A DNA stretch of 7,307 bases, from the NCBI GenBank assembly GCA_016932965.1, contig JAFGBW010000027.1, positions 1 through 7,307 of the forward strand, in the 5' to 3' direction. Origin of the DNA: Candidatus Auribacterota bacterium. Lineage in GTDB: Bacteria > Auribacterota > JAFGBW01. Positions 1 to 6,870 of the stretch are shown piece after piece (the first letter of the stretch is position 1; every line of letters starts with the position of its first letter). The position numbers were made by a program, and so were the translations under genes. Below the pieces are notes generated by a model. That model was given only the letters and a program-made list of their open reading frames with translations. It was not told the DNA's origin and searched no databases.

Positions 1-252
1 GGCGGTATCATCAGGGATAACATTTCCGGTTCCGCCGTTAGAATCAACAGGCTCAGTATCGTCAGGGATAACGGGTTCAGTTCCGCCACTAGAATCATCA
101 GGGATAACAGGTCCAGTTTCGCCATCGTCGGTTTGTTCTGTTCCGGCGGTATCATCAGGGATAACAGGCCCGGTTCCGCCATCGTCGGTTGGTCCGGTTC
201 CGGCAGAATCAGTGGGCCCAGTCCCGGCCGTGTCGGTTGGCCCTGTTCCTGC
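1..252 (-). repeat. In-frame Gly/Thr/Pro/Asp repeat array inside the minus-strand gene
   Basis: From residue 155 on, the protein first runs through three 8-residue units of the form AGTGPTD[T/S/D]. It then switches to longer units built around G[T/E]xPVIPDD. The VIPDD-encoding 15-mer occurs four times on the plus strand in reverse complement, at 7-21, 58-72, 94-108 and 151-165. The copies differ by only a few bases, which points to recent expansion by slippage or recombination. The array continues past the window edge, so its full length is unknown. Confidence 0.85.
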
Positions 253-714
253 CGTAGTTTCAGTGCTGGAACCATCATCGTCATCATCAGAAGGGGAACG
301 GCCTCCCTGACCTCCTGTTTCCCCGGCATCATCCTTGTTATTAGAGGTATCATCATTACTGCAACCGGCTGGTAAAGCCAGTAATGCGAGTAATCCAAAT
401 CTGGCTACCATTTTTTTTGTACGGCTTGCCCTTGAGCTTACTGCAGTGGAGTTCATGAAGCTTGGCCTGCTGTTTACATAGGTTGAATTCGTGAAGCTTT
501 TCTGTCCGCCTGATGGTGCTGAATGATTGCTTTGCCCTGAGGAATCCGATATCATGATTTCTACTGCCGTTGTATCTTCGTGTTCGGCCTGGACCCTGCC
601 TCTTTTAATTTTTGTTCTGGGAGCAAGATGGCTGGAAAAGATATCCGCATGCAGATAGAACAGGCATGAGAGAATCGTCAGTAAAAGGATAAATATTTCG
701 GGTATTTTTTTCAT
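1..714 (-). CDS. Repeat-rich exported or membrane-anchored surface protein, 3' end outside window
   Basis: The frame is open without a stop for 238 codons from ATG at 714-712 and runs off the window. An in-frame TGA at 720-718 sits just upstream, so this is the first possible ATG. I do not recognise the family. Residues 1-23 (MKKIPEIFILLLTILSCLFY, then LHA) look like a signal peptide or N-terminal membrane anchor. Residues 64-100 are Ser/Asn-rich and hold a 12-residue tandem duplication. Residues 102-118 (MVARFGLLALLALPAGC) form a second hydrophobic segment ending in a lipobox-like LPAGC, then SNDD. An Asp run (about residues 142-146) leads into Gly/Thr/Pro/Asp repeats from residue 155 onward (GTGPTD and VIPDD units), which suggests an extended stalk or linker. 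The internal ATG at 411-409 would give a short lipoprotein signal with Cys at position 17, so a lipoprotein starting there is the main alternative. No clear Shine-Dalgarno precedes either start. That it is coding and exported is fairly sure; its function is unknown. Confidence 0.7.
   Translation of the reverse strand, partial: MKKIPEIFILLLTILSCLFYLHADIFSSHLAPRTKIKRGRVQAEHEDTTAVEIMISDSSGQSNHSAPSGGQKSFTNSTYVNSRPSFMNSTAVSSRASRTKKMVARFGLLALLALPAGCSNDDTSNNKDDAGETGGQGGRSPSDDDDDGSSTETTAGTGPTDTAGTGPTDSAGTGPTDDGGTGPVIPDDTAGTEQTDDGETGPVIPDDSSGGTEPVIPDDTEPVDSNGGTGNVIPDDTA
427..498 (-). repeat. 36-bp in-frame tandem duplication (12-residue units)
   Basis: Two adjacent 36-bp units (498-463 and 462-427 on the minus strand) encode SFTNSTYVNSRP and SFMNSTAVSSRA. 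The two peptides share 8 of 12 positions. They sit in the Ser/Asn-rich segment just before the second hydrophobic stretch of the protein. Confidence 0.75.
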
Positions 715-2229: not shown

Positions 2230-3357
2230 ATGAATAAAAAAATCGCCTTGGTTATCAAAGATTTTGATCCGAAAAAAGGGGGAGGGGAGCGTTACAGCGT
2301 CAATCTGGCCCGGGAATTAAAGAAAAAAAATCTGGCCTTTGATGTGATTGCGCGCAGTGTTTCTCCTGAGCTGGAAAAAGAATTCTCTGTGCGGCTGATT
2401 CATCCCAAAAGGTCCTGGTTTTCCAAAAGTCTGGCTTTTAATGAGGCTTTTCAGAATGAAATCAGTTCTTCCGAATACAACTGTGTAGTGGGTTTGACCC
2501 AGATCACACCCTGTCGGATTTACCGCGCCGGAGGGGGCCTGCTCTCTGAATGGGAAAAAATCCATTTCAGGGGGATTTTGGGAAATATCCGCAAGTGGTT
2601 TTCCCTGAATCACAAGTATTCATTAAAGCTGGAGCAGGAGATCCTCATGAATCCGGGGCTTAAACATATCGTGGTCAATTCCGAACTGGTACGGCTTCAG
2701 TTCATGAAAGCCTATCCGCATCTTACGGATCGTCTGGTTTATATCGGGAACGGCATTGACCGGGCCCTTTTTTATCCCAGGAACTGGAACCGGGAGATCA
2801 AGCAGTCTTTTTTCAGGAAAAAAGGGATCAAAGGAGGTGAAATCGTTCTTCTTTTTGTTGCCAATAATTTCAGGAGAAAAGGCATTTTTCATCTCATTGA
2901 AGCGTTGTCCCTTTTTAAGAACAGGGAGCGTTTCCGGCTGATAGTGGCTGGAAACGGCCGGATAAGGCAGGTCCGGGCTTTTGCCTGGAGGAAAAACGTT
3001 TTAGATCTCCTGCATTTCACCGGTCCGGTGTATTCTGAATTAAACGAGTGGTACAACGCCTCAGATGTTTTCATGCTGCCGACTCTTTATGATCCTTGCT
3101 CCAATTCCTGTCTGGAGGCCATGGCTTGCGGCACTCCGGTCGTGACAACGGATTTAAACGGCGCCTCCATGTATCTGGAAAAAGGGGGAGGCATGATTGT
3201 GAATTCCGGGAGCATCACTTCCGGGATCCTGGAAGCCTTTCACTGGATTGATTCTTTCTGGCATGAATGGGACGAAGTGCGCCAAAAGGCCGTGCAGGCA
3301 GTCGCTCCGCTGACCATTTCAAAAAACGCCGAGCAGATGCTGTCTCTGATTCATTAA
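2230..3357 (+). CDS. WaaG-like LPS core glycosyltransferase (family 4, GT-B fold)
   Basis: It probably transfers a hexose from a nucleotide sugar to the heptose region of the LPS core, in the cytoplasm or at the inner membrane. It has 375 residues, almost the length of E. coli WaaG. The N-terminal acceptor domain has the glycine loop GGGERYS (17-23). The hinge region contains VNSE and NGID (174-177). The donor domain has FVANNFRRKG (209-218), with basic residues that in this family contact the donor phosphates. The motif DPCSNSCLE (288-296) is the EX7E element with Asp replacing the first Glu, followed by AMACGTPVV. The 129-bp gap to the waaF-type gene is AT-rich with no clear terminator, so co-transcription is possible. 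The ATG at 2230 is preceded only by a weak GAGATATAAAG. The exact sugar cannot be read from sequence, so no gene symbol is given. Confidence 0.85.
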   Translation: MNKKIALVIKDFDPKKGGGERYSVNLARELKKKNLAFDVIARSVSPELEKEFSVRLIHPKRSWFSKSLAFNEAFQNEISSSEYNCVVGLTQITPCRIYRAGGGLLSEWEKIHFRGILGNIRKWFSLNHKYSLKLEQEILMNPGLKHIVVNSELVRLQFMKAYPHLTDRLVYIGNGIDRALFYPRNWNREIKQSFFRKKGIKGGEIVLLFVANNFRRKGIFHLIEALSLFKNRERFRLIVAGNGRIRQVRAFAWRKNVLDLLHFTGPVYSELNEWYNASDVFMLPTLYDPCSNSCLEAMACGTPVVTTDLNGASMYLEKGGGMIVNSGSITSGILEAFHWIDSFWHEWDEVRQKAVQAVAPLTISKNAEQMLSLIH

Positions 3358-3362
3358 ATAAG

Positions 3363-3393
3363 TACAAAGGCACAGAGGAGCAAAGGTACAAAG
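3363..3393. repeat. Short degenerate repeat of the TACAAAG/CACAGAG type
   Basis: TACAAAG occurs at 3363-3369 and 3387-3393, flanking GCACAGAGGAGCAAAGG. It begins six bases after the stop codon of the WaaG-like gene. Its composition resembles the repeat remnants in the other gaps of this window. Confidence 0.55.
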
Positions 3394-3437
3394 TAGTGGA
3401 TAAGGTAGTAAGTCTGGAAATCATGAAAATCCGCCTC

Positions 3438-3547: not shown

Positions 3548-3868
3548 ATGGGAAAGAAGAAATACGTTAAACCATTATTGCGTCTCATCAGCAGTGAGGC
3601 CCAGGCAGCTCAATGTGTTTCCGGATGGGCTCCGTCTTTGACCCCGGGCTCATGCACATCCGGGCCGGCCGCTAATCTTCTGTGCAATGCAGGTAATTGG
3701 GCAGATACCCAGTGTTACGCCGGATTCAATGCCATCGGCCCTGCTGAACCCACTTGTTCCACGGGGAATGCCGCGGGCACTTCCTGCAATTCAGGCACCT
3801 CTGCCGGTTCCCAGGCTCCGCCCGCTACAGCCACCTGTACCGTAGGTTTCAGTCCCACCACAGTTTGA
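3548..3868 (+). CDS. Putative RiPP precursor with seven CxxGxx[A/P] repeats
   Basis: This 106-residue protein has no family I can name with certainty. Residues 1-22 (MGKKKYVKPLLRLISSEAQA, then AQ) form a basic leader-like segment containing Y6-x-x-P9-x-L11. YxxPxL is the motif by which lasso-peptide leaders bind their PqqD-like recognition proteins. Residues 23-106 contain seven Cys (23, 36, 46, 56, 70, 80, 97). Each begins CxxG and has Ala or Pro at +6; the basic unit is ten residues, with insertions in three of the gaps. After Arg12 there is no Lys or Arg, and the core is rich in Gly, Ala, Ser and Thr. There is no signal peptide. An in-frame TTG at 3512 would add 12 residues, but the ATG gives the cleaner leader. 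No Shine-Dalgarno is visible. No maturase is in the window, so modification (for example thioether bridges by a radical SAM enzyme) is inference. A Cys-rich structural peptide is the alternative. Confidence 0.7.
   Translation: MGKKKYVKPLLRLISSEAQAAQCVSGWAPSLTPGSCTSGPAANLLCNAGNWADTQCYAGFNAIGPAEPTCSTGNAAGTSCNSGTSAGSQAPPATATCTVGFSPTTV
3614..3865 (+). repeat. Seven CxxGxx[A/P] units in the core of the small peptide
   Basis: The units start CVSGWAP, CTSGPAA, CNAGNWA, CYAGFNA, CSTGNAA, CNSGTSA and CTVGFSP. Distances between the Cys residues are 13, 10, 10, 14, 10 and 17 residues. All seven keep Cys, Gly at +3 and a small residue at +2; the +6 position is Ala five times and Pro twice. The DNA copies have diverged strongly while these positions are kept, which points to selection on the protein pattern. 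Confidence 0.85.
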
Positions 3869-3959: not shown

Positions 3960-5609
3960 ATGGGTTCAAAAAAACTGGTTACCTGTATTGATATCGGAAC
4001 GGATTCCATCAAATTTCTCTCCGGAGGCTGGTCGTCCGAACAGGTGGAACTCCATCAGATGGCTGTTTTTCCCTACCAGCCCGGATCGTTTCAAAAGTAC
4101 GGACTGGATGTTCAGTTAGATACGCTGAAAGAGGTCCTCCTGAAACAGAAAATCAAGGATCCTGTGGTCGTATCATTGAGCGATCCCTCGACCGCACTGC
4201 AGCAGATTTCTTTTCCGAACATGCCTGACAATGAGCTGCGTTCGGCAATCCAGTGGGAACTCACACAGAAAAAGAAACTGGATCCGAATAAAACAGCCTA
4301 TGATTTTATCCAGGTCACTCCCGCCTATGAGGATGCTTCCAATAAGATCGTTCTCATCACAACCAAGAATAAGAATGATATTTCGAAATTACTCGCTCTG
4401 TTTGCCGCACAGAAAATCAAGGTCCTGGCGGTGGAAACCCCGGTATTCGCGCTCATACAGGGCATTAAGAATCAGCAGAAATTTCCATCCTCCCGGGCCT
4501 ATCTCATCCTGAACCTGGGGGCCTCCACCTGCATTAATATTGCCCATAACGGCCAGCTGGTTTTTGAGCGCAAATTAAACACAGGCGGAGAATCACTGAC
4601 CAAGGCCATTGTGGAATACTGTAAACTGGATTGGGAAAGCGCTGAAAAGATCAAGACAGAGCACGGTATTTCCTCCTCCGTATTGAGCGACAAGATCATT
4701 GAAGCGCGGCATATTCTGACCTCATCGCTGGAAAAACTGGTTTCGGAAATCCAGTATACCATCAAGTATTTTTTCTATCAGGTGACGAAATCCAAAATCA
4801 CGGCTTTTGAAAAGCTCATCCTGACCGGCGGGGGAGCTTATCTTCCGGGTTTATTGGATTTCATGAAGGAGAGGCTGGGCATGGACTGTGTCCTGGCTGA
4901 TTTTTCGGAAAGAACGGTCCTGCCCAAAGGCATCGTTTTTCCGGAAGACAAGTCTTTTTCTCCTCTTTTCGCCACGGCCCTGGGACTGGGCTACTGGAAT
5001 GAGGAGAATTTGACCGCAGGCTGTTCTTCTTTCATAGAAAGGCATGAAAAAGAGAAGCCTAAATCTGCGGTTCAGAAAATCATTGCCGGCTTTTTTTCAG
5101 CGGTTGTCGTCATCACCTTCATCATCGGAGTGGCTTTTTTTCTGACCGTGTATATGAAAAAACTGGACTCCATGGTGATCGGGCCTTTGGAAAAACACAA
5201 CAGGGAAAGCACGGAGGTGATTTCCAATCTGGAGAAGCAGGAGGCGCTTTCTAAAACCAGGATCGTGGAGATTGAATCGTTGAAGAAAGAGAAGGAATCG
5301 CTGCTCAAGGACTTGAGAAGGAAAATGGACTCCATCCGGTCTTATCATCCCCTGGAAGAGTCTCTCGGGGATCAATTCCGGATCATTTCAGAAGAGGTGC
5401 CGGCCGGACTTTTCGCCTTCCAGATTGAAGTGAATGAGCCCGATCTTGTCATGAGCGGCATCGCTCCCTCGAACGAGGTGATCGCGGAATTCATGAAAAA
5501 TCTGAACGGTTCCGGAAAGTTCAGGAACTGCAATTTTCTTTACACGCGGAAGACCGAAGAGAACAAGGATTTAAAAGGGACTGAATTCGAATTGCGGGCG
5601 GAGGCGTAA
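3960..5609 (+). CDS. PilM-PilN fusion, type IV pilus alignment-complex protein
   Basis: It joins the cytoplasmic actin-like ATPase PilM to the inner-membrane protein PilN in one chain of 549 residues. PilM is usually about 350 residues and PilN about 190. Residues 1 to about 350 are PilM: phosphate-1 motif CIDIGTDSIKFL (9-20), phosphate-2 LILNLGAST (182-190), adenosine motif ILTGGGAYLPGL (287 on), ending in FATALGLGYW. Residues 376-398 form one transmembrane segment. Beyond it come a charged coiled coil (about 400-455) and a small periplasmic domain, as in PilN. The INLLP motif with which free PilN docks into PilM is not seen at the junction (ERHEKEKPKSAVQKII). The layout resembles GspL of type II secretion, but the well-kept nucleotide motifs favour PilM. 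ATG 3960 has a weak AAGG six bases upstream. PilO-PilP and secretin genes follow. Confidence 0.88.
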   Translation: MGSKKLVTCIDIGTDSIKFLSGGWSSEQVELHQMAVFPYQPGSFQKYGLDVQLDTLKEVLLKQKIKDPVVVSLSDPSTALQQISFPNMPDNELRSAIQWELTQKKKLDPNKTAYDFIQVTPAYEDASNKIVLITTKNKNDISKLLALFAAQKIKVLAVETPVFALIQGIKNQQKFPSSRAYLILNLGASTCINIAHNGQLVFERKLNTGGESLTKAIVEYCKLDWESAEKIKTEHGISSSVLSDKIIEARHILTSSLEKLVSEIQYTIKYFFYQVTKSKITAFEKLILTGGGAYLPGLLDFMKERLGMDCVLADFSERTVLPKGIVFPEDKSFSPLFATALGLGYWNEENLTAGCSSFIERHEKEKPKSAVQKIIAGFFSAVVVITFIIGVAFFLTVYMKKLDSMVIGPLEKHNRESTEVISNLEKQEALSKTRIVEIESLKKEKESLLKDLRRKMDSIRSYHPLEESLGDQFRIISEEVPAGLFAFQIEVNEPDLVMSGIAPSNEVIAEFMKNLNGSGKFRNCNFLYTRKTEENKDLKGTEFELRAEA

Positions 5610-5653
5610 AAAGGAAATTAATAAAAGAAGTTTTCACCACGGAGGGGGTGGAA

Positions 5654-5788: not shown

Positions 5789-6700
5789 ATGGCTGCAAAA
5801 CTGCAAAAACGGGAAATAGTCTGGCTGCTGATCCTTTCACTGGTCGTGGGAGGCTCGTGGTTCAATAAAAACCAGTATGCCCCGCGCAAGAAGAAAATCC
5901 GGGCGCTCCGGGCCACCCGGGAGTTGCTTAACAGTAAGATTTCGAAGCTGGAACAGGAAAATGTGGTACTTTCGAAGAAGGAGGATGAGCTTAAAGCTTA
6001 TGATACGGAGATAACCCGGCAAAGAGACGAGCTCCAGAACCTGGAAGCCTCCATTCCCAAAAGACAGGAGCTGGACCGCCTCCTGTATTATCTGACGCAC
6101 GGCCGTAAAGGCATTGAGTTCGAATCCATCAAACCTCTTGAAAACAGGGAGAAGAAGACCCCCGGGGAAAATGAAACCCCTTCCGTGGGTTACAGGGCGC
6201 AGAATTATGAAATCATTTGTTCAGGCACTTATTCGGACATCGTTTGCTATTTATCCTATCTCGATAAGATTTCCCCCTTTGCCAAGGTCAGCATGGCCAG
6301 GGTCTTCCAGAACAGGGAAAAGAAGGAAAATCGTCTAATGGCAAACGTGAAGCTGTCCATTCTGATTTCGGACGAGCCAGGAGGAAAAGGATCGTCATTC
6401 CAGGTGGACAACGTTCCAAAATACCGGGAATTGAAAAACCCCTTTTATGAATGGAAGGCCGGCACAAATGAGGAGCAAGAGGAGGAGGAAATCAAGAACG
6501 AGCCACCGAAACTGGACATCAAAGGGATATTGAAGGTGGGCAGTGAATTTCGCGTGATCATTGAGGAAAAAATTTATAAGATAGGCGACCGGGTTGAGGA
6601 GTGCACCATCAAGTCGATTGCCGAGGACAAGCTTGTTGTTGAAAAAGCAGGAATTGTTTATGAAATTCCGATGAAGGAAAAGAAAGACAACAAGAATTAG
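5789..6700 (+). CDS. PilO-PilP fusion, type IV pilus alignment-complex protein
   Basis: It combines inner-membrane PilO with periplasmic PilP in one protein of 303 residues. PilO alone is about 200 residues and PilP about 170, so the PilP part is reduced. A short cytoplasmic tail precedes one transmembrane helix (about residues 10-25, IVWLLILSLVVGGSWF). A coiled coil follows (about 38-95), then the PilO ferredoxin-like region with GTYSDIVCYLSYLDKISPF. After LKNPFYEWK comes an acidic linker (EEQEEEEIKNE, about 228-238). The C-terminal PilP-like beta domain has the pattern KGILKVGSEFRVIIEEKIYK, then IGDRVEECTIKSIAEDKLVV. Free PilP is a lipoprotein; here the lipid anchor is missing and the PilO helix replaces it. 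It follows the PilM-PilN gene and precedes the secretin gene. ATG 5789 has no Shine-Dalgarno. The PilO call is firm; the PilP call is likely. GspM/GspC homology is a possible alternative reading. Confidence 0.82.
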   Translation: MAAKLQKREIVWLLILSLVVGGSWFNKNQYAPRKKKIRALRATRELLNSKISKLEQENVVLSKKEDELKAYDTEITRQRDELQNLEASIPKRQELDRLLYYLTHGRKGIEFESIKPLENREKKTPGENETPSVGYRAQNYEIICSGTYSDIVCYLSYLDKISPFAKVSMARVFQNREKKENRLMANVKLSILISDEPGGKGSSFQVDNVPKYRELKNPFYEWKAGTNEEQEEEEIKNEPPKLDIKGILKVGSEFRVIIEEKIYKIGDRVEECTIKSIAEDKLVVEKAGIVYEIPMKEKKDNKN

Positions 6701-6716
6701 ATAGTAAAAGATTTAC

Positions 6717-6743
6717 CACGAAGGACACGAAGAGCACGAAGGA
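6717..6743. repeat. Three tandem CACGAAGGA units with an inverted copy downstream
   Basis: CACGAAGGA (6717-6725), CACGAAGAG (6726-6734) and CACGAAGGA (6735-6743) are exact 9-bp tandem units. About 50 bases on, CTTGATGGTCTTCATGGT (6790-6807) is a degenerate reverse-complement copy, matching 13 of 18 positions of ACCACGAAGGACACGAAG. Confidence 0.75.
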
Positions 6744-6870
6744 ATTTTAAAAAATCACAGAGATGAGGAAAATTTTTAATCTTCTTTTTCTTGATGGTCT
6801 TCATGGTGAAAAAATATATTTAGCTGCGGCTGTGCCGTAATAACTCATTTGTGGTTAAAAGATGATTAAT

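What the first reader, a model, noticed from the sequence alone, without database searches (positions are those of the whole stretch)
3548..3868. Possible new RiPP precursor family: seven CxxGxx[A/P] repeats
The sequence shows a small gene with a short basic leader and a core of seven units. Each unit keeps Cys, Gly at +3 and Ala/Pro at +6, while the rest varies. Known RiPPs with repeated Cys cores (for example ranthipeptides and other radical-SAM-modified peptides) show this kind of regular Cys spacing. The strict CxxG register suggests one enzyme acting repeatedly, perhaps forming a thioether link from each Cys. The exact pattern is not one I can assign to a described class.
Basis: partly seen in the sequence, partly recalled or inferred. 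Interest (0 to 1): 0.85.

Follow-up and report, generated by a model that had tools for sequence, protein, structure and literature searches.

The report
Orphan SynChlorMet-type CxxG-repeat RiPP precursor
A small gene encodes a peptide with seven Cys-x-x-Gly units that belongs to a widespread but chemically unexplored group of peptides made by paired radical-SAM enzymes; here the peptide gene sits alone, and its likely enzymes lie elsewhere in the same genome.

Summary
ORF 3548-3868 (+) has seven Cys, all in CxxGxx[A/P]; no composition shuffle of the core (0 of 200,000) has more than four. The gene has no close relative in its phylum, but a genome-wide pattern scan found about 25 small peptides with the same anatomy (YxxPx[LIV] leader, then CxxG units, mostly 10 residues apart) in at least nine phyla including Methanothrix archaea. 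In 16 of 21 such loci, versus 0 of 95 control loci, ScmE/ScmF radical-SAM/SPASM genes lie within the fetched stretch. This is the in-silico SynChlorMet (SCM) cassette, with precursor ScmA (TIGR04252). A profile built without the window peptide finds it at E about 1e-12; its leader alone beats 20,000 shuffles.

The window itself carries no maturase. The same genome encodes, on other contigs, a true ScmF-clade SPASM enzyme, a ScmE-like PqqD-radical-SAM fusion, a ScmD-like PqqD and a HprK-like kinase. So this is an orphan member of a known kind with scattered maturation genes, not a new class. The product is unknown. The best guess is an unnested Cys-to-Gly (i,i+3) sactionine ring at each unit, as in streptosactin's Cys31-Gly34. 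That chemistry is inference; family membership is well supported.

The parts
3548..3868 (+). Orphan ScmA-like precursor peptide gene (106 aa plus stop)
   Evidence: profile of relatives without it hits it at 47.7-49.7 bits, E about 1e-12; hhalign probability 96.7, E 3e-10; E 1.5e-8 in its genome
3548..3613 (+). Leader MGKKKYVKPLLRLISSEAQAAQ with YxxPx[L] motif (Y6 V7 K8 P9 L10 L11), inferred to bind a PqqD-type RRE
   Evidence: Leader-only profile: 17.3 bits, best of 20,000 shuffles 14.0; [Y/W]xxPx[L/V/I/F/A] is the RRE-binding motif of lasso and LPP leaders (PMC13381572)
3614..3865 (+). Core with seven CxxGxx[A/P] units: CVSGWAP, CTSGPAA, CNAGNWA, CYAGFNA, CSTGNAA, CNSGTSA, CTVGFSP

Best explanation
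The gene encodes the precursor of a ribosomal peptide of the SynChlorMet (ScmA) kind. Shown here: it belongs by sequence to a family of YxxP-leader, CxxG-repeat peptides that are encoded beside ScmD (PqqD-like), ScmE and ScmF (radical SAM/SPASM), ScmC (HprK-like) and an ABC exporter; and its genome encodes a ScmF-clade enzyme, a ScmE-like PqqD-radical-SAM fusion, a ScmD-like PqqD and a HprK-like kinase on other contigs. Inferred: the YxxPxL leader docks on the PqqD-type recognition element; the SPASM enzyme(s) act in trans along the core, abstract a hydrogen from the Gly alpha-carbon at +3 and join it to the Cys sulfur, giving up to seven unnested four-residue sactionine rings (about -2 Da each, -14 Da in all); the leader is then removed and the product exported.
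For: Family anatomy and profile matches. Co-localisation: 16 of 21 family loci have ScmE/F of at least 140 bits, 0 of 95 control loci from the same scan, Fisher p about 1e-15; NCBIfam names the neighbours ScmC to ScmF. Same-phylum genome G006 carries a CxxG peptide with ScmD, ScmE, ScmF, a HprK-like protein and an ABC transporter. Own genome: ScmF-like at C239:4588-5634, 313 bits, SPASM domain, inside the ScmF clade with 99/99 support and with CxxxCxxC plus CX11GX4C...CX2CX5CX3C...C intact; ScmE-like PqqD fusion on C232; ScmD as best NCBIfam hit for a PqqD on C62; HprK-like protein on C282. Of 44 phylum genomes, only G000 and G006 have ScmF above 300 bits, and both encode such a peptide. Gly is the most fixed residue after Cys (161 of 173). 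Closest solved sequence to the own ScmF is SkfB, a sactipeptide maturase. Streptosactin has Cys31-Gly34 and Cys25-Ser28 unnested links made by a SPASM enzyme (PMC8172795).
Against: The peptide gene is an orphan, next to a glycosyltransferase and pilM, with no maturase on its contig; trans action is assumed. The own maturases score below the NCBIfam cut-offs (ScmF 313 of 400, ScmE 147 of 400, ScmD 40 of 100). No close orthologue exists to show selection on this very gene. No chemistry is known for any SCM product in the literature held. The pattern used to collect relatives favoured [A/P] at +6 and 10-residue spacing.
Confidence: 0.62

Rival explanations
1. Same kind of RiPP precursor, but the SPASM enzymes do other chemistry: a thioether from Cys to another residue (for example the +6 Ala/Pro or a Ser/Thr/Asn, ranthipeptide-like), epimerisation, or, with the HprK-like kinase, phosphorylation of Ser as in linear polyphosphorylated peptides. 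The CxxG unit would then be a recognition or turn motif.
For: SCM cassettes share RRE, HprK-like kinase, archaeal-type signal peptidase and ABC exporter with the LPP system, where LppK phosphorylates a core Ser (PMC13381572). The cassette has two rSAM enzymes, so more than one reaction is likely. The core has many Ser/Thr.
Against: Cys and +3 Gly are the fixed pair in the family (93%), more than any Ser/Thr position; Gly has no beta-carbon, so a Cys-Gly link must be a sactionine.
Confidence: 0.25
2. A relict: the precursor was stranded when its cassette was lost or broken up, and is no longer modified.
For: No maturase on the contig; the Scm-like proteins are scattered and divergent; no relative detected in 42 of the 44 genomes of the phylum searched.
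Against: All seven units and the leader are intact, with diverged DNA between units; the ScmF is intact with all cluster-binding Cys.
Confidence: 0.1
3. An ordinary small Cys-rich protein that binds metal or forms disulfides, unrelated to RiPP maturation; the likeness to ScmA peptides is convergence of a low-complexity A/G/S/T/C sequence.
For: Biased composition; no hit to any NCBIfam, Pfam, PHROGs or PDB entry.
Against: Leader alone matches the family beyond all 20,000 shuffles, and core shuffles reach only 25 bits against 48; no obvious signal peptide; ScmF present in the same genome.
Confidence: 0.03

Closest known systems
SynChlorMet (SCM) cassette, precursor ScmA (NCBIfam TIGR04252), with ScmC, ScmD, ScmE, ScmF (TIGR04249, 04248, 04250, 04251)
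   Same: YxxP leader plus CxxG repeats; relatives of the window peptide sit inside such cassettes; the genome has ScmF-, ScmE- and ScmD-like proteins
   Different: The window peptide does not hit TIGR04252 even at E 10; it is not in a cassette; its genome's Scm-like proteins are below the equivalog cut-offs and dispersed
Streptosactin (GggA/GggB, Streptococcus)
   Same: Works alike if the guess is right: unnested i,i+3 Cys-x-x-Gly and Cys-x-x-Ser sactionines made by a SPASM radical SAM enzyme
   Different: 14-residue product with two rings in an unrelated leader context, GggB alone; here seven units, separate PqqD and probably two rSAM enzymes; no rings shown
Linear polyphosphorylated peptides (LPP) of Bacillota
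   Same: YxxPx[V] leader, discrete RRE, HprK-like kinase, archaeal-type signal peptidase, ABC exporter
   Different: No radical SAM enzymes reported in that system and no CxxG repeats; phosphorylation is the known modification
Ranthipeptides with repeated motifs (freyrasin/PapA, CX3D)
   Same: Repeated Cys motif worked on by one SPASM enzyme (general knowledge; PapB in PMC9413430)
   Different: Acceptor is Asp/Glu at a non-alpha carbon, motif CX3D not CX2G

Membership tests
SynChlorMet ScmA (TIGR04252) | Match to the curated ScmA model above 35 bits | tested here: not met
   No hit at E up to 10 (none at E 1); cassette-borne relatives also score at most 9-20 bits
SynChlorMet ScmA-like peptides (broad family built here) | YxxPx[LIV] leader followed after about 17-24 residues by CxxG units | tested here: met
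   Leave-out profiles E about 1e-12, leader-only test 0 of 20,000 shuffles, hhalign E 3e-10
SynChlorMet cassette | Precursor gene clustered with ScmC, ScmD, ScmE and ScmF | tested here: not met
   Whole 7307-base contig read; only heptosyltransferase, GT4, PilM, PilO and PilQ genes and a repeat protein
SynChlorMet cassette | ScmE/ScmF-type radical SAM/SPASM enzymes present in the genome, above the curated cut-off of 400 bits | tested here: inconclusive
   ScmF 313 bits, clade support 99/99; ScmE-like 147 bits, tree place unsure. Both below cut-off, but the cassette-borne ScmF of G006 and L149 also are (319 and 304 bits)
Sactipeptide | Cys sulfur to alpha-carbon thioether | not testable with these tools
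   Needs MS/NMR of the product
Ranthipeptide | Cys sulfur to a non-alpha carbon thioether | not testable with these tools
   Needs MS/NMR; a Gly acceptor would exclude it
Lasso peptide | Asn-synthetase-like cyclase (C) and transglutaminase-like B2 protease beside the precursor | tested here: not met
   None among the genes of the contig

The most novel reading that the evidence does not exclude
A phylum-spanning class of poly-sactionine peptides (about 5 to 14 unnested Cys-to-Gly i,i+3 rings per chain), made by the ScmD/E/F system in bacteria and methanogens, with this genome using scattered maturases in trans on an orphan precursor.
Probability: 0.35. Interest if true: 0.72.

Novelty: new member of a known kind. 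Interest (0 to 1): 0.5.

Why it matters
SynChlorMet cassettes have carried model names in NCBIfam without a product or published chemistry that could be found in the held literature. Placing an orphan CxxG peptide in that family, listing about 25 diverse relatives in at least nine phyla including archaea, and pointing to a Cys-x-x-Gly ring with a precedent gives a directly testable substrate-enzyme pair. If the rings form, one enzyme would build a long chain of identical small thioether rings with very tolerant sequence, which is useful for peptide engineering.

Tried and rejected
Direct homology searches with the peptide gave nothing real: genome contigs and viral contigs by back-translated words, plasmids and phages by tblastn, PDB, Pfam, NCBIfam and PHROGs. 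Weak whole-protein and leader hits in phylum genomes were low-complexity or shadow frames, many with stops. A first CxxG pattern had a spacing error and failed on the window itself; it was corrected. Viral pattern hits were tandem-repeat frames and served as background. Other KYxKP sites in the genome are not peptides of this kind. No Rfam element in the window; promoter- and terminator-like sites are no more than chance. Considered and dropped: lasso precursor (no cyclase or protease) and secreted Cys-rich protein (no obvious signal peptide). The leave-out profile found no further member in the phylum below E 1e-3, but it also missed the G006 peptide, so absence elsewhere is not proven.

Full report
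OBSERVATION. The window is a whole contig (C10, 7307 bases) of a 3.14-Mb, 300-contig draft genome. ORF 3548-3868 (+) encodes 106 residues: leader MGKKKYVKPLLRLISSEAQAAQ and a core with seven Cys, each in CxxGxx[A/P]. Shuffling the core 200,000 times never gave more than four such motifs. The units are not a DNA tandem repeat. Third-position GC matches the neighbours.

SURROUNDINGS. Upstream are a heptosyltransferase II-like gene (1030-2100) and a GT4 glycosyltransferase (2230-3357); downstream are PilM with a PilN domain (3960-5609), a PilO-like gene (5789-6700) and the start of PilQ (6862-). No maturase, RRE or transporter is on the contig. So the peptide gene is an orphan.

FINDING RELATIVES. 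Direct sequence searches failed, as expected for a short biased peptide. Most are tandem-repeat frames, but 21 loci hold small ORFs with a YxxP leader and at least three CxxG: Methanothrix (L202, L219), Aminicenantes (L160, L213), Omnitrophota (L149, L222, L229, L244), Desulfobacterota and other deltaproteobacterial lineages (L148, L151, L152, L170, L223, L227, L234, L255), Verrucomicrobia (L200), Lentisphaerae (L211), Chloroflexi (L231), Fermentibacteria (L253) and Zymogenaceae (L239). Because the scan stopped at its limit, the family is larger. Across these peptides Gly follows at +3 for 161 of 173 Cys and A/P at +6 together with it for about 71%; the Cys-to-Cys distance is 10 in most cases. 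The scan pattern itself favours these values.

MEMBERSHIP OF THE WINDOW PEPTIDE. Profiles built without it find it at 47.7-49.7 bits (E about 1e-12 against some 19,000 sequences), while whole shuffles reach at most 10.8 bits and core shuffles with the leader kept at most 25.1 bits. The leader alone scores 17.3 bits; none of 20,000 shuffles reaches it (best 14.0). hhalign gives probability 96.7 and E 3e-10. In its own phylum (44 genomes) it is the only match below E 1e-3.

WHAT THE FAMILY IS. In 16 of 21 loci ScmE/ScmF homologues of at least 140 bits lie within the fetched stretch, against 0 of 95 other loci of the same scan (Fisher p about 1e-15). Three of the five exceptions (L148, L152, L239) show no Scm gene in the stretch fetched; L151 has a cut ScmF and a ScmC at a contig edge, and L244 a ScmD on a short contig. 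NCBIfam names the neighbours SynChlorMet ScmD, ScmE, ScmF and ScmC, several above cut-off, and several relatives hit the ScmA model TIGR04252 weakly. The Syntrophaceae (L170) and Methanothrix (L202) loci also encode an ABC transporter, and L170 an archaeal-type signal peptidase domain. In the same phylum, genome G006 has such a cassette with peptide MEKIYESPQIKVLGGTNEQASGFTGVNNCENGNNATVLCSNG....

THE GENOME'S OWN MATURASES. ScmF-like on C239:4588-5634, 313 bits, with SPASM domain, inside the ScmF clade with 99/99 support; CxxxCxxC at 18-25 and the SPASM pattern C250-X11-G-X4-C267 ... C311-X2-C314-X5-C320-X3-C324 ... C342 are intact. A PqqD-radical SAM-SPASM fusion on C232 is closest to ScmE, but its place in the tree is unsure (long branch). 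A PqqD on C62 has ScmD as its best NCBIfam family (39.7 bits, like G006's cassette-borne ScmD at 38.4). C282 carries a HprK-like kinase and an NTP_transf_5 protein. All single-protein scores are below the NCBIfam equivalog cut-offs. Only G000 and G006 of 44 phylum genomes have ScmF above 300 bits, and both have such a peptide.

HOW IT MOST LIKELY WORKS. Shown: family membership, co-localisation of the family with a two-rSAM/RRE system, presence of homologous enzymes in this genome. Inferred from established families: the [Y/W]xxPx[LVIFA] leader motif is what discrete RREs bind in lasso and LPP pathways (PMC13381572), so the PqqD-type protein should present this leader. SPASM radical SAM enzymes of sactipeptides abstract an alpha-hydrogen and form S-C-alpha bonds (PMC8188230). 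The fixed pair Cys and +3 Gly has an exact precedent in streptosactin (Cys31-Gly34, and Cys25-Ser28, unnested; PMC8172795). Since Gly has only an alpha carbon, a Cys-Gly link would be a sactionine. The closest solved sequence to the own ScmF is the sactipeptide maturase SkfB. The HprK-like protein may add phosphate, as in LPP. Chemistry and trans action are not shown.

NOVELTY. Neither 'SynChlorMet' nor ScmE with ScmF was found in the held papers, so the product class seems chemically uncharacterised, but the kind was already recognised by NCBIfam models. The window adds a divergent orphan member that the ScmA model misses, with dispersed maturase candidates. I file it as a new member of a known kind and rate interest at 0.5.

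Noticed in passing
G000 contig C282 (L276:1-6910): HprK-like kinase, two radical SAM proteins, a GT9-like protein and an NTP_transf_5 protein in a row: parts shared with LPP/lasso tailoring loci, perhaps a second RiPP-type locus of this genome.
   Followed up: partly
G000 contig C277 (L275:1773-3246): A PqqD-type protein (closest to lasso PqqD) followed by a radical SAM gene near the end of a short contig; no precursor seen.
   Followed up: no
L266:3459-3656 (-) and nearby: In same-phylum genome G006 a second, apparently broken CxxG peptide reading frame lies beside the intact one, as if precursor copies turn over fast.
   Followed up: no
L160: The Aminicenantes locus holds two different CxxG peptides, two ScmF and two ScmD genes with one ScmE: a duplicated cassette.
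   Followed up: partly
L227:1208-2162: Two adjacent long peptides with many CxxG units, among the longest cores seen in the family.
   Followed up: no
window 3-714 (-): Gene cut by the contig end, with a lipoprotein-like internal stretch (PAGCSN) and a low-complexity tail of TGPVIPDD-like repeats; no family match.
   Followed up: no
window 3358-3400, 5625-5650, 6703-6745: Intergenic stretches rich in CACGAAGG / CACAGAGG-like short repeats, also seen in the gap just upstream of the peptide gene.
   Followed up: no
window 3960-5609: PilM and PilN domains are fused in one 549-aa protein.
   Followed up: no
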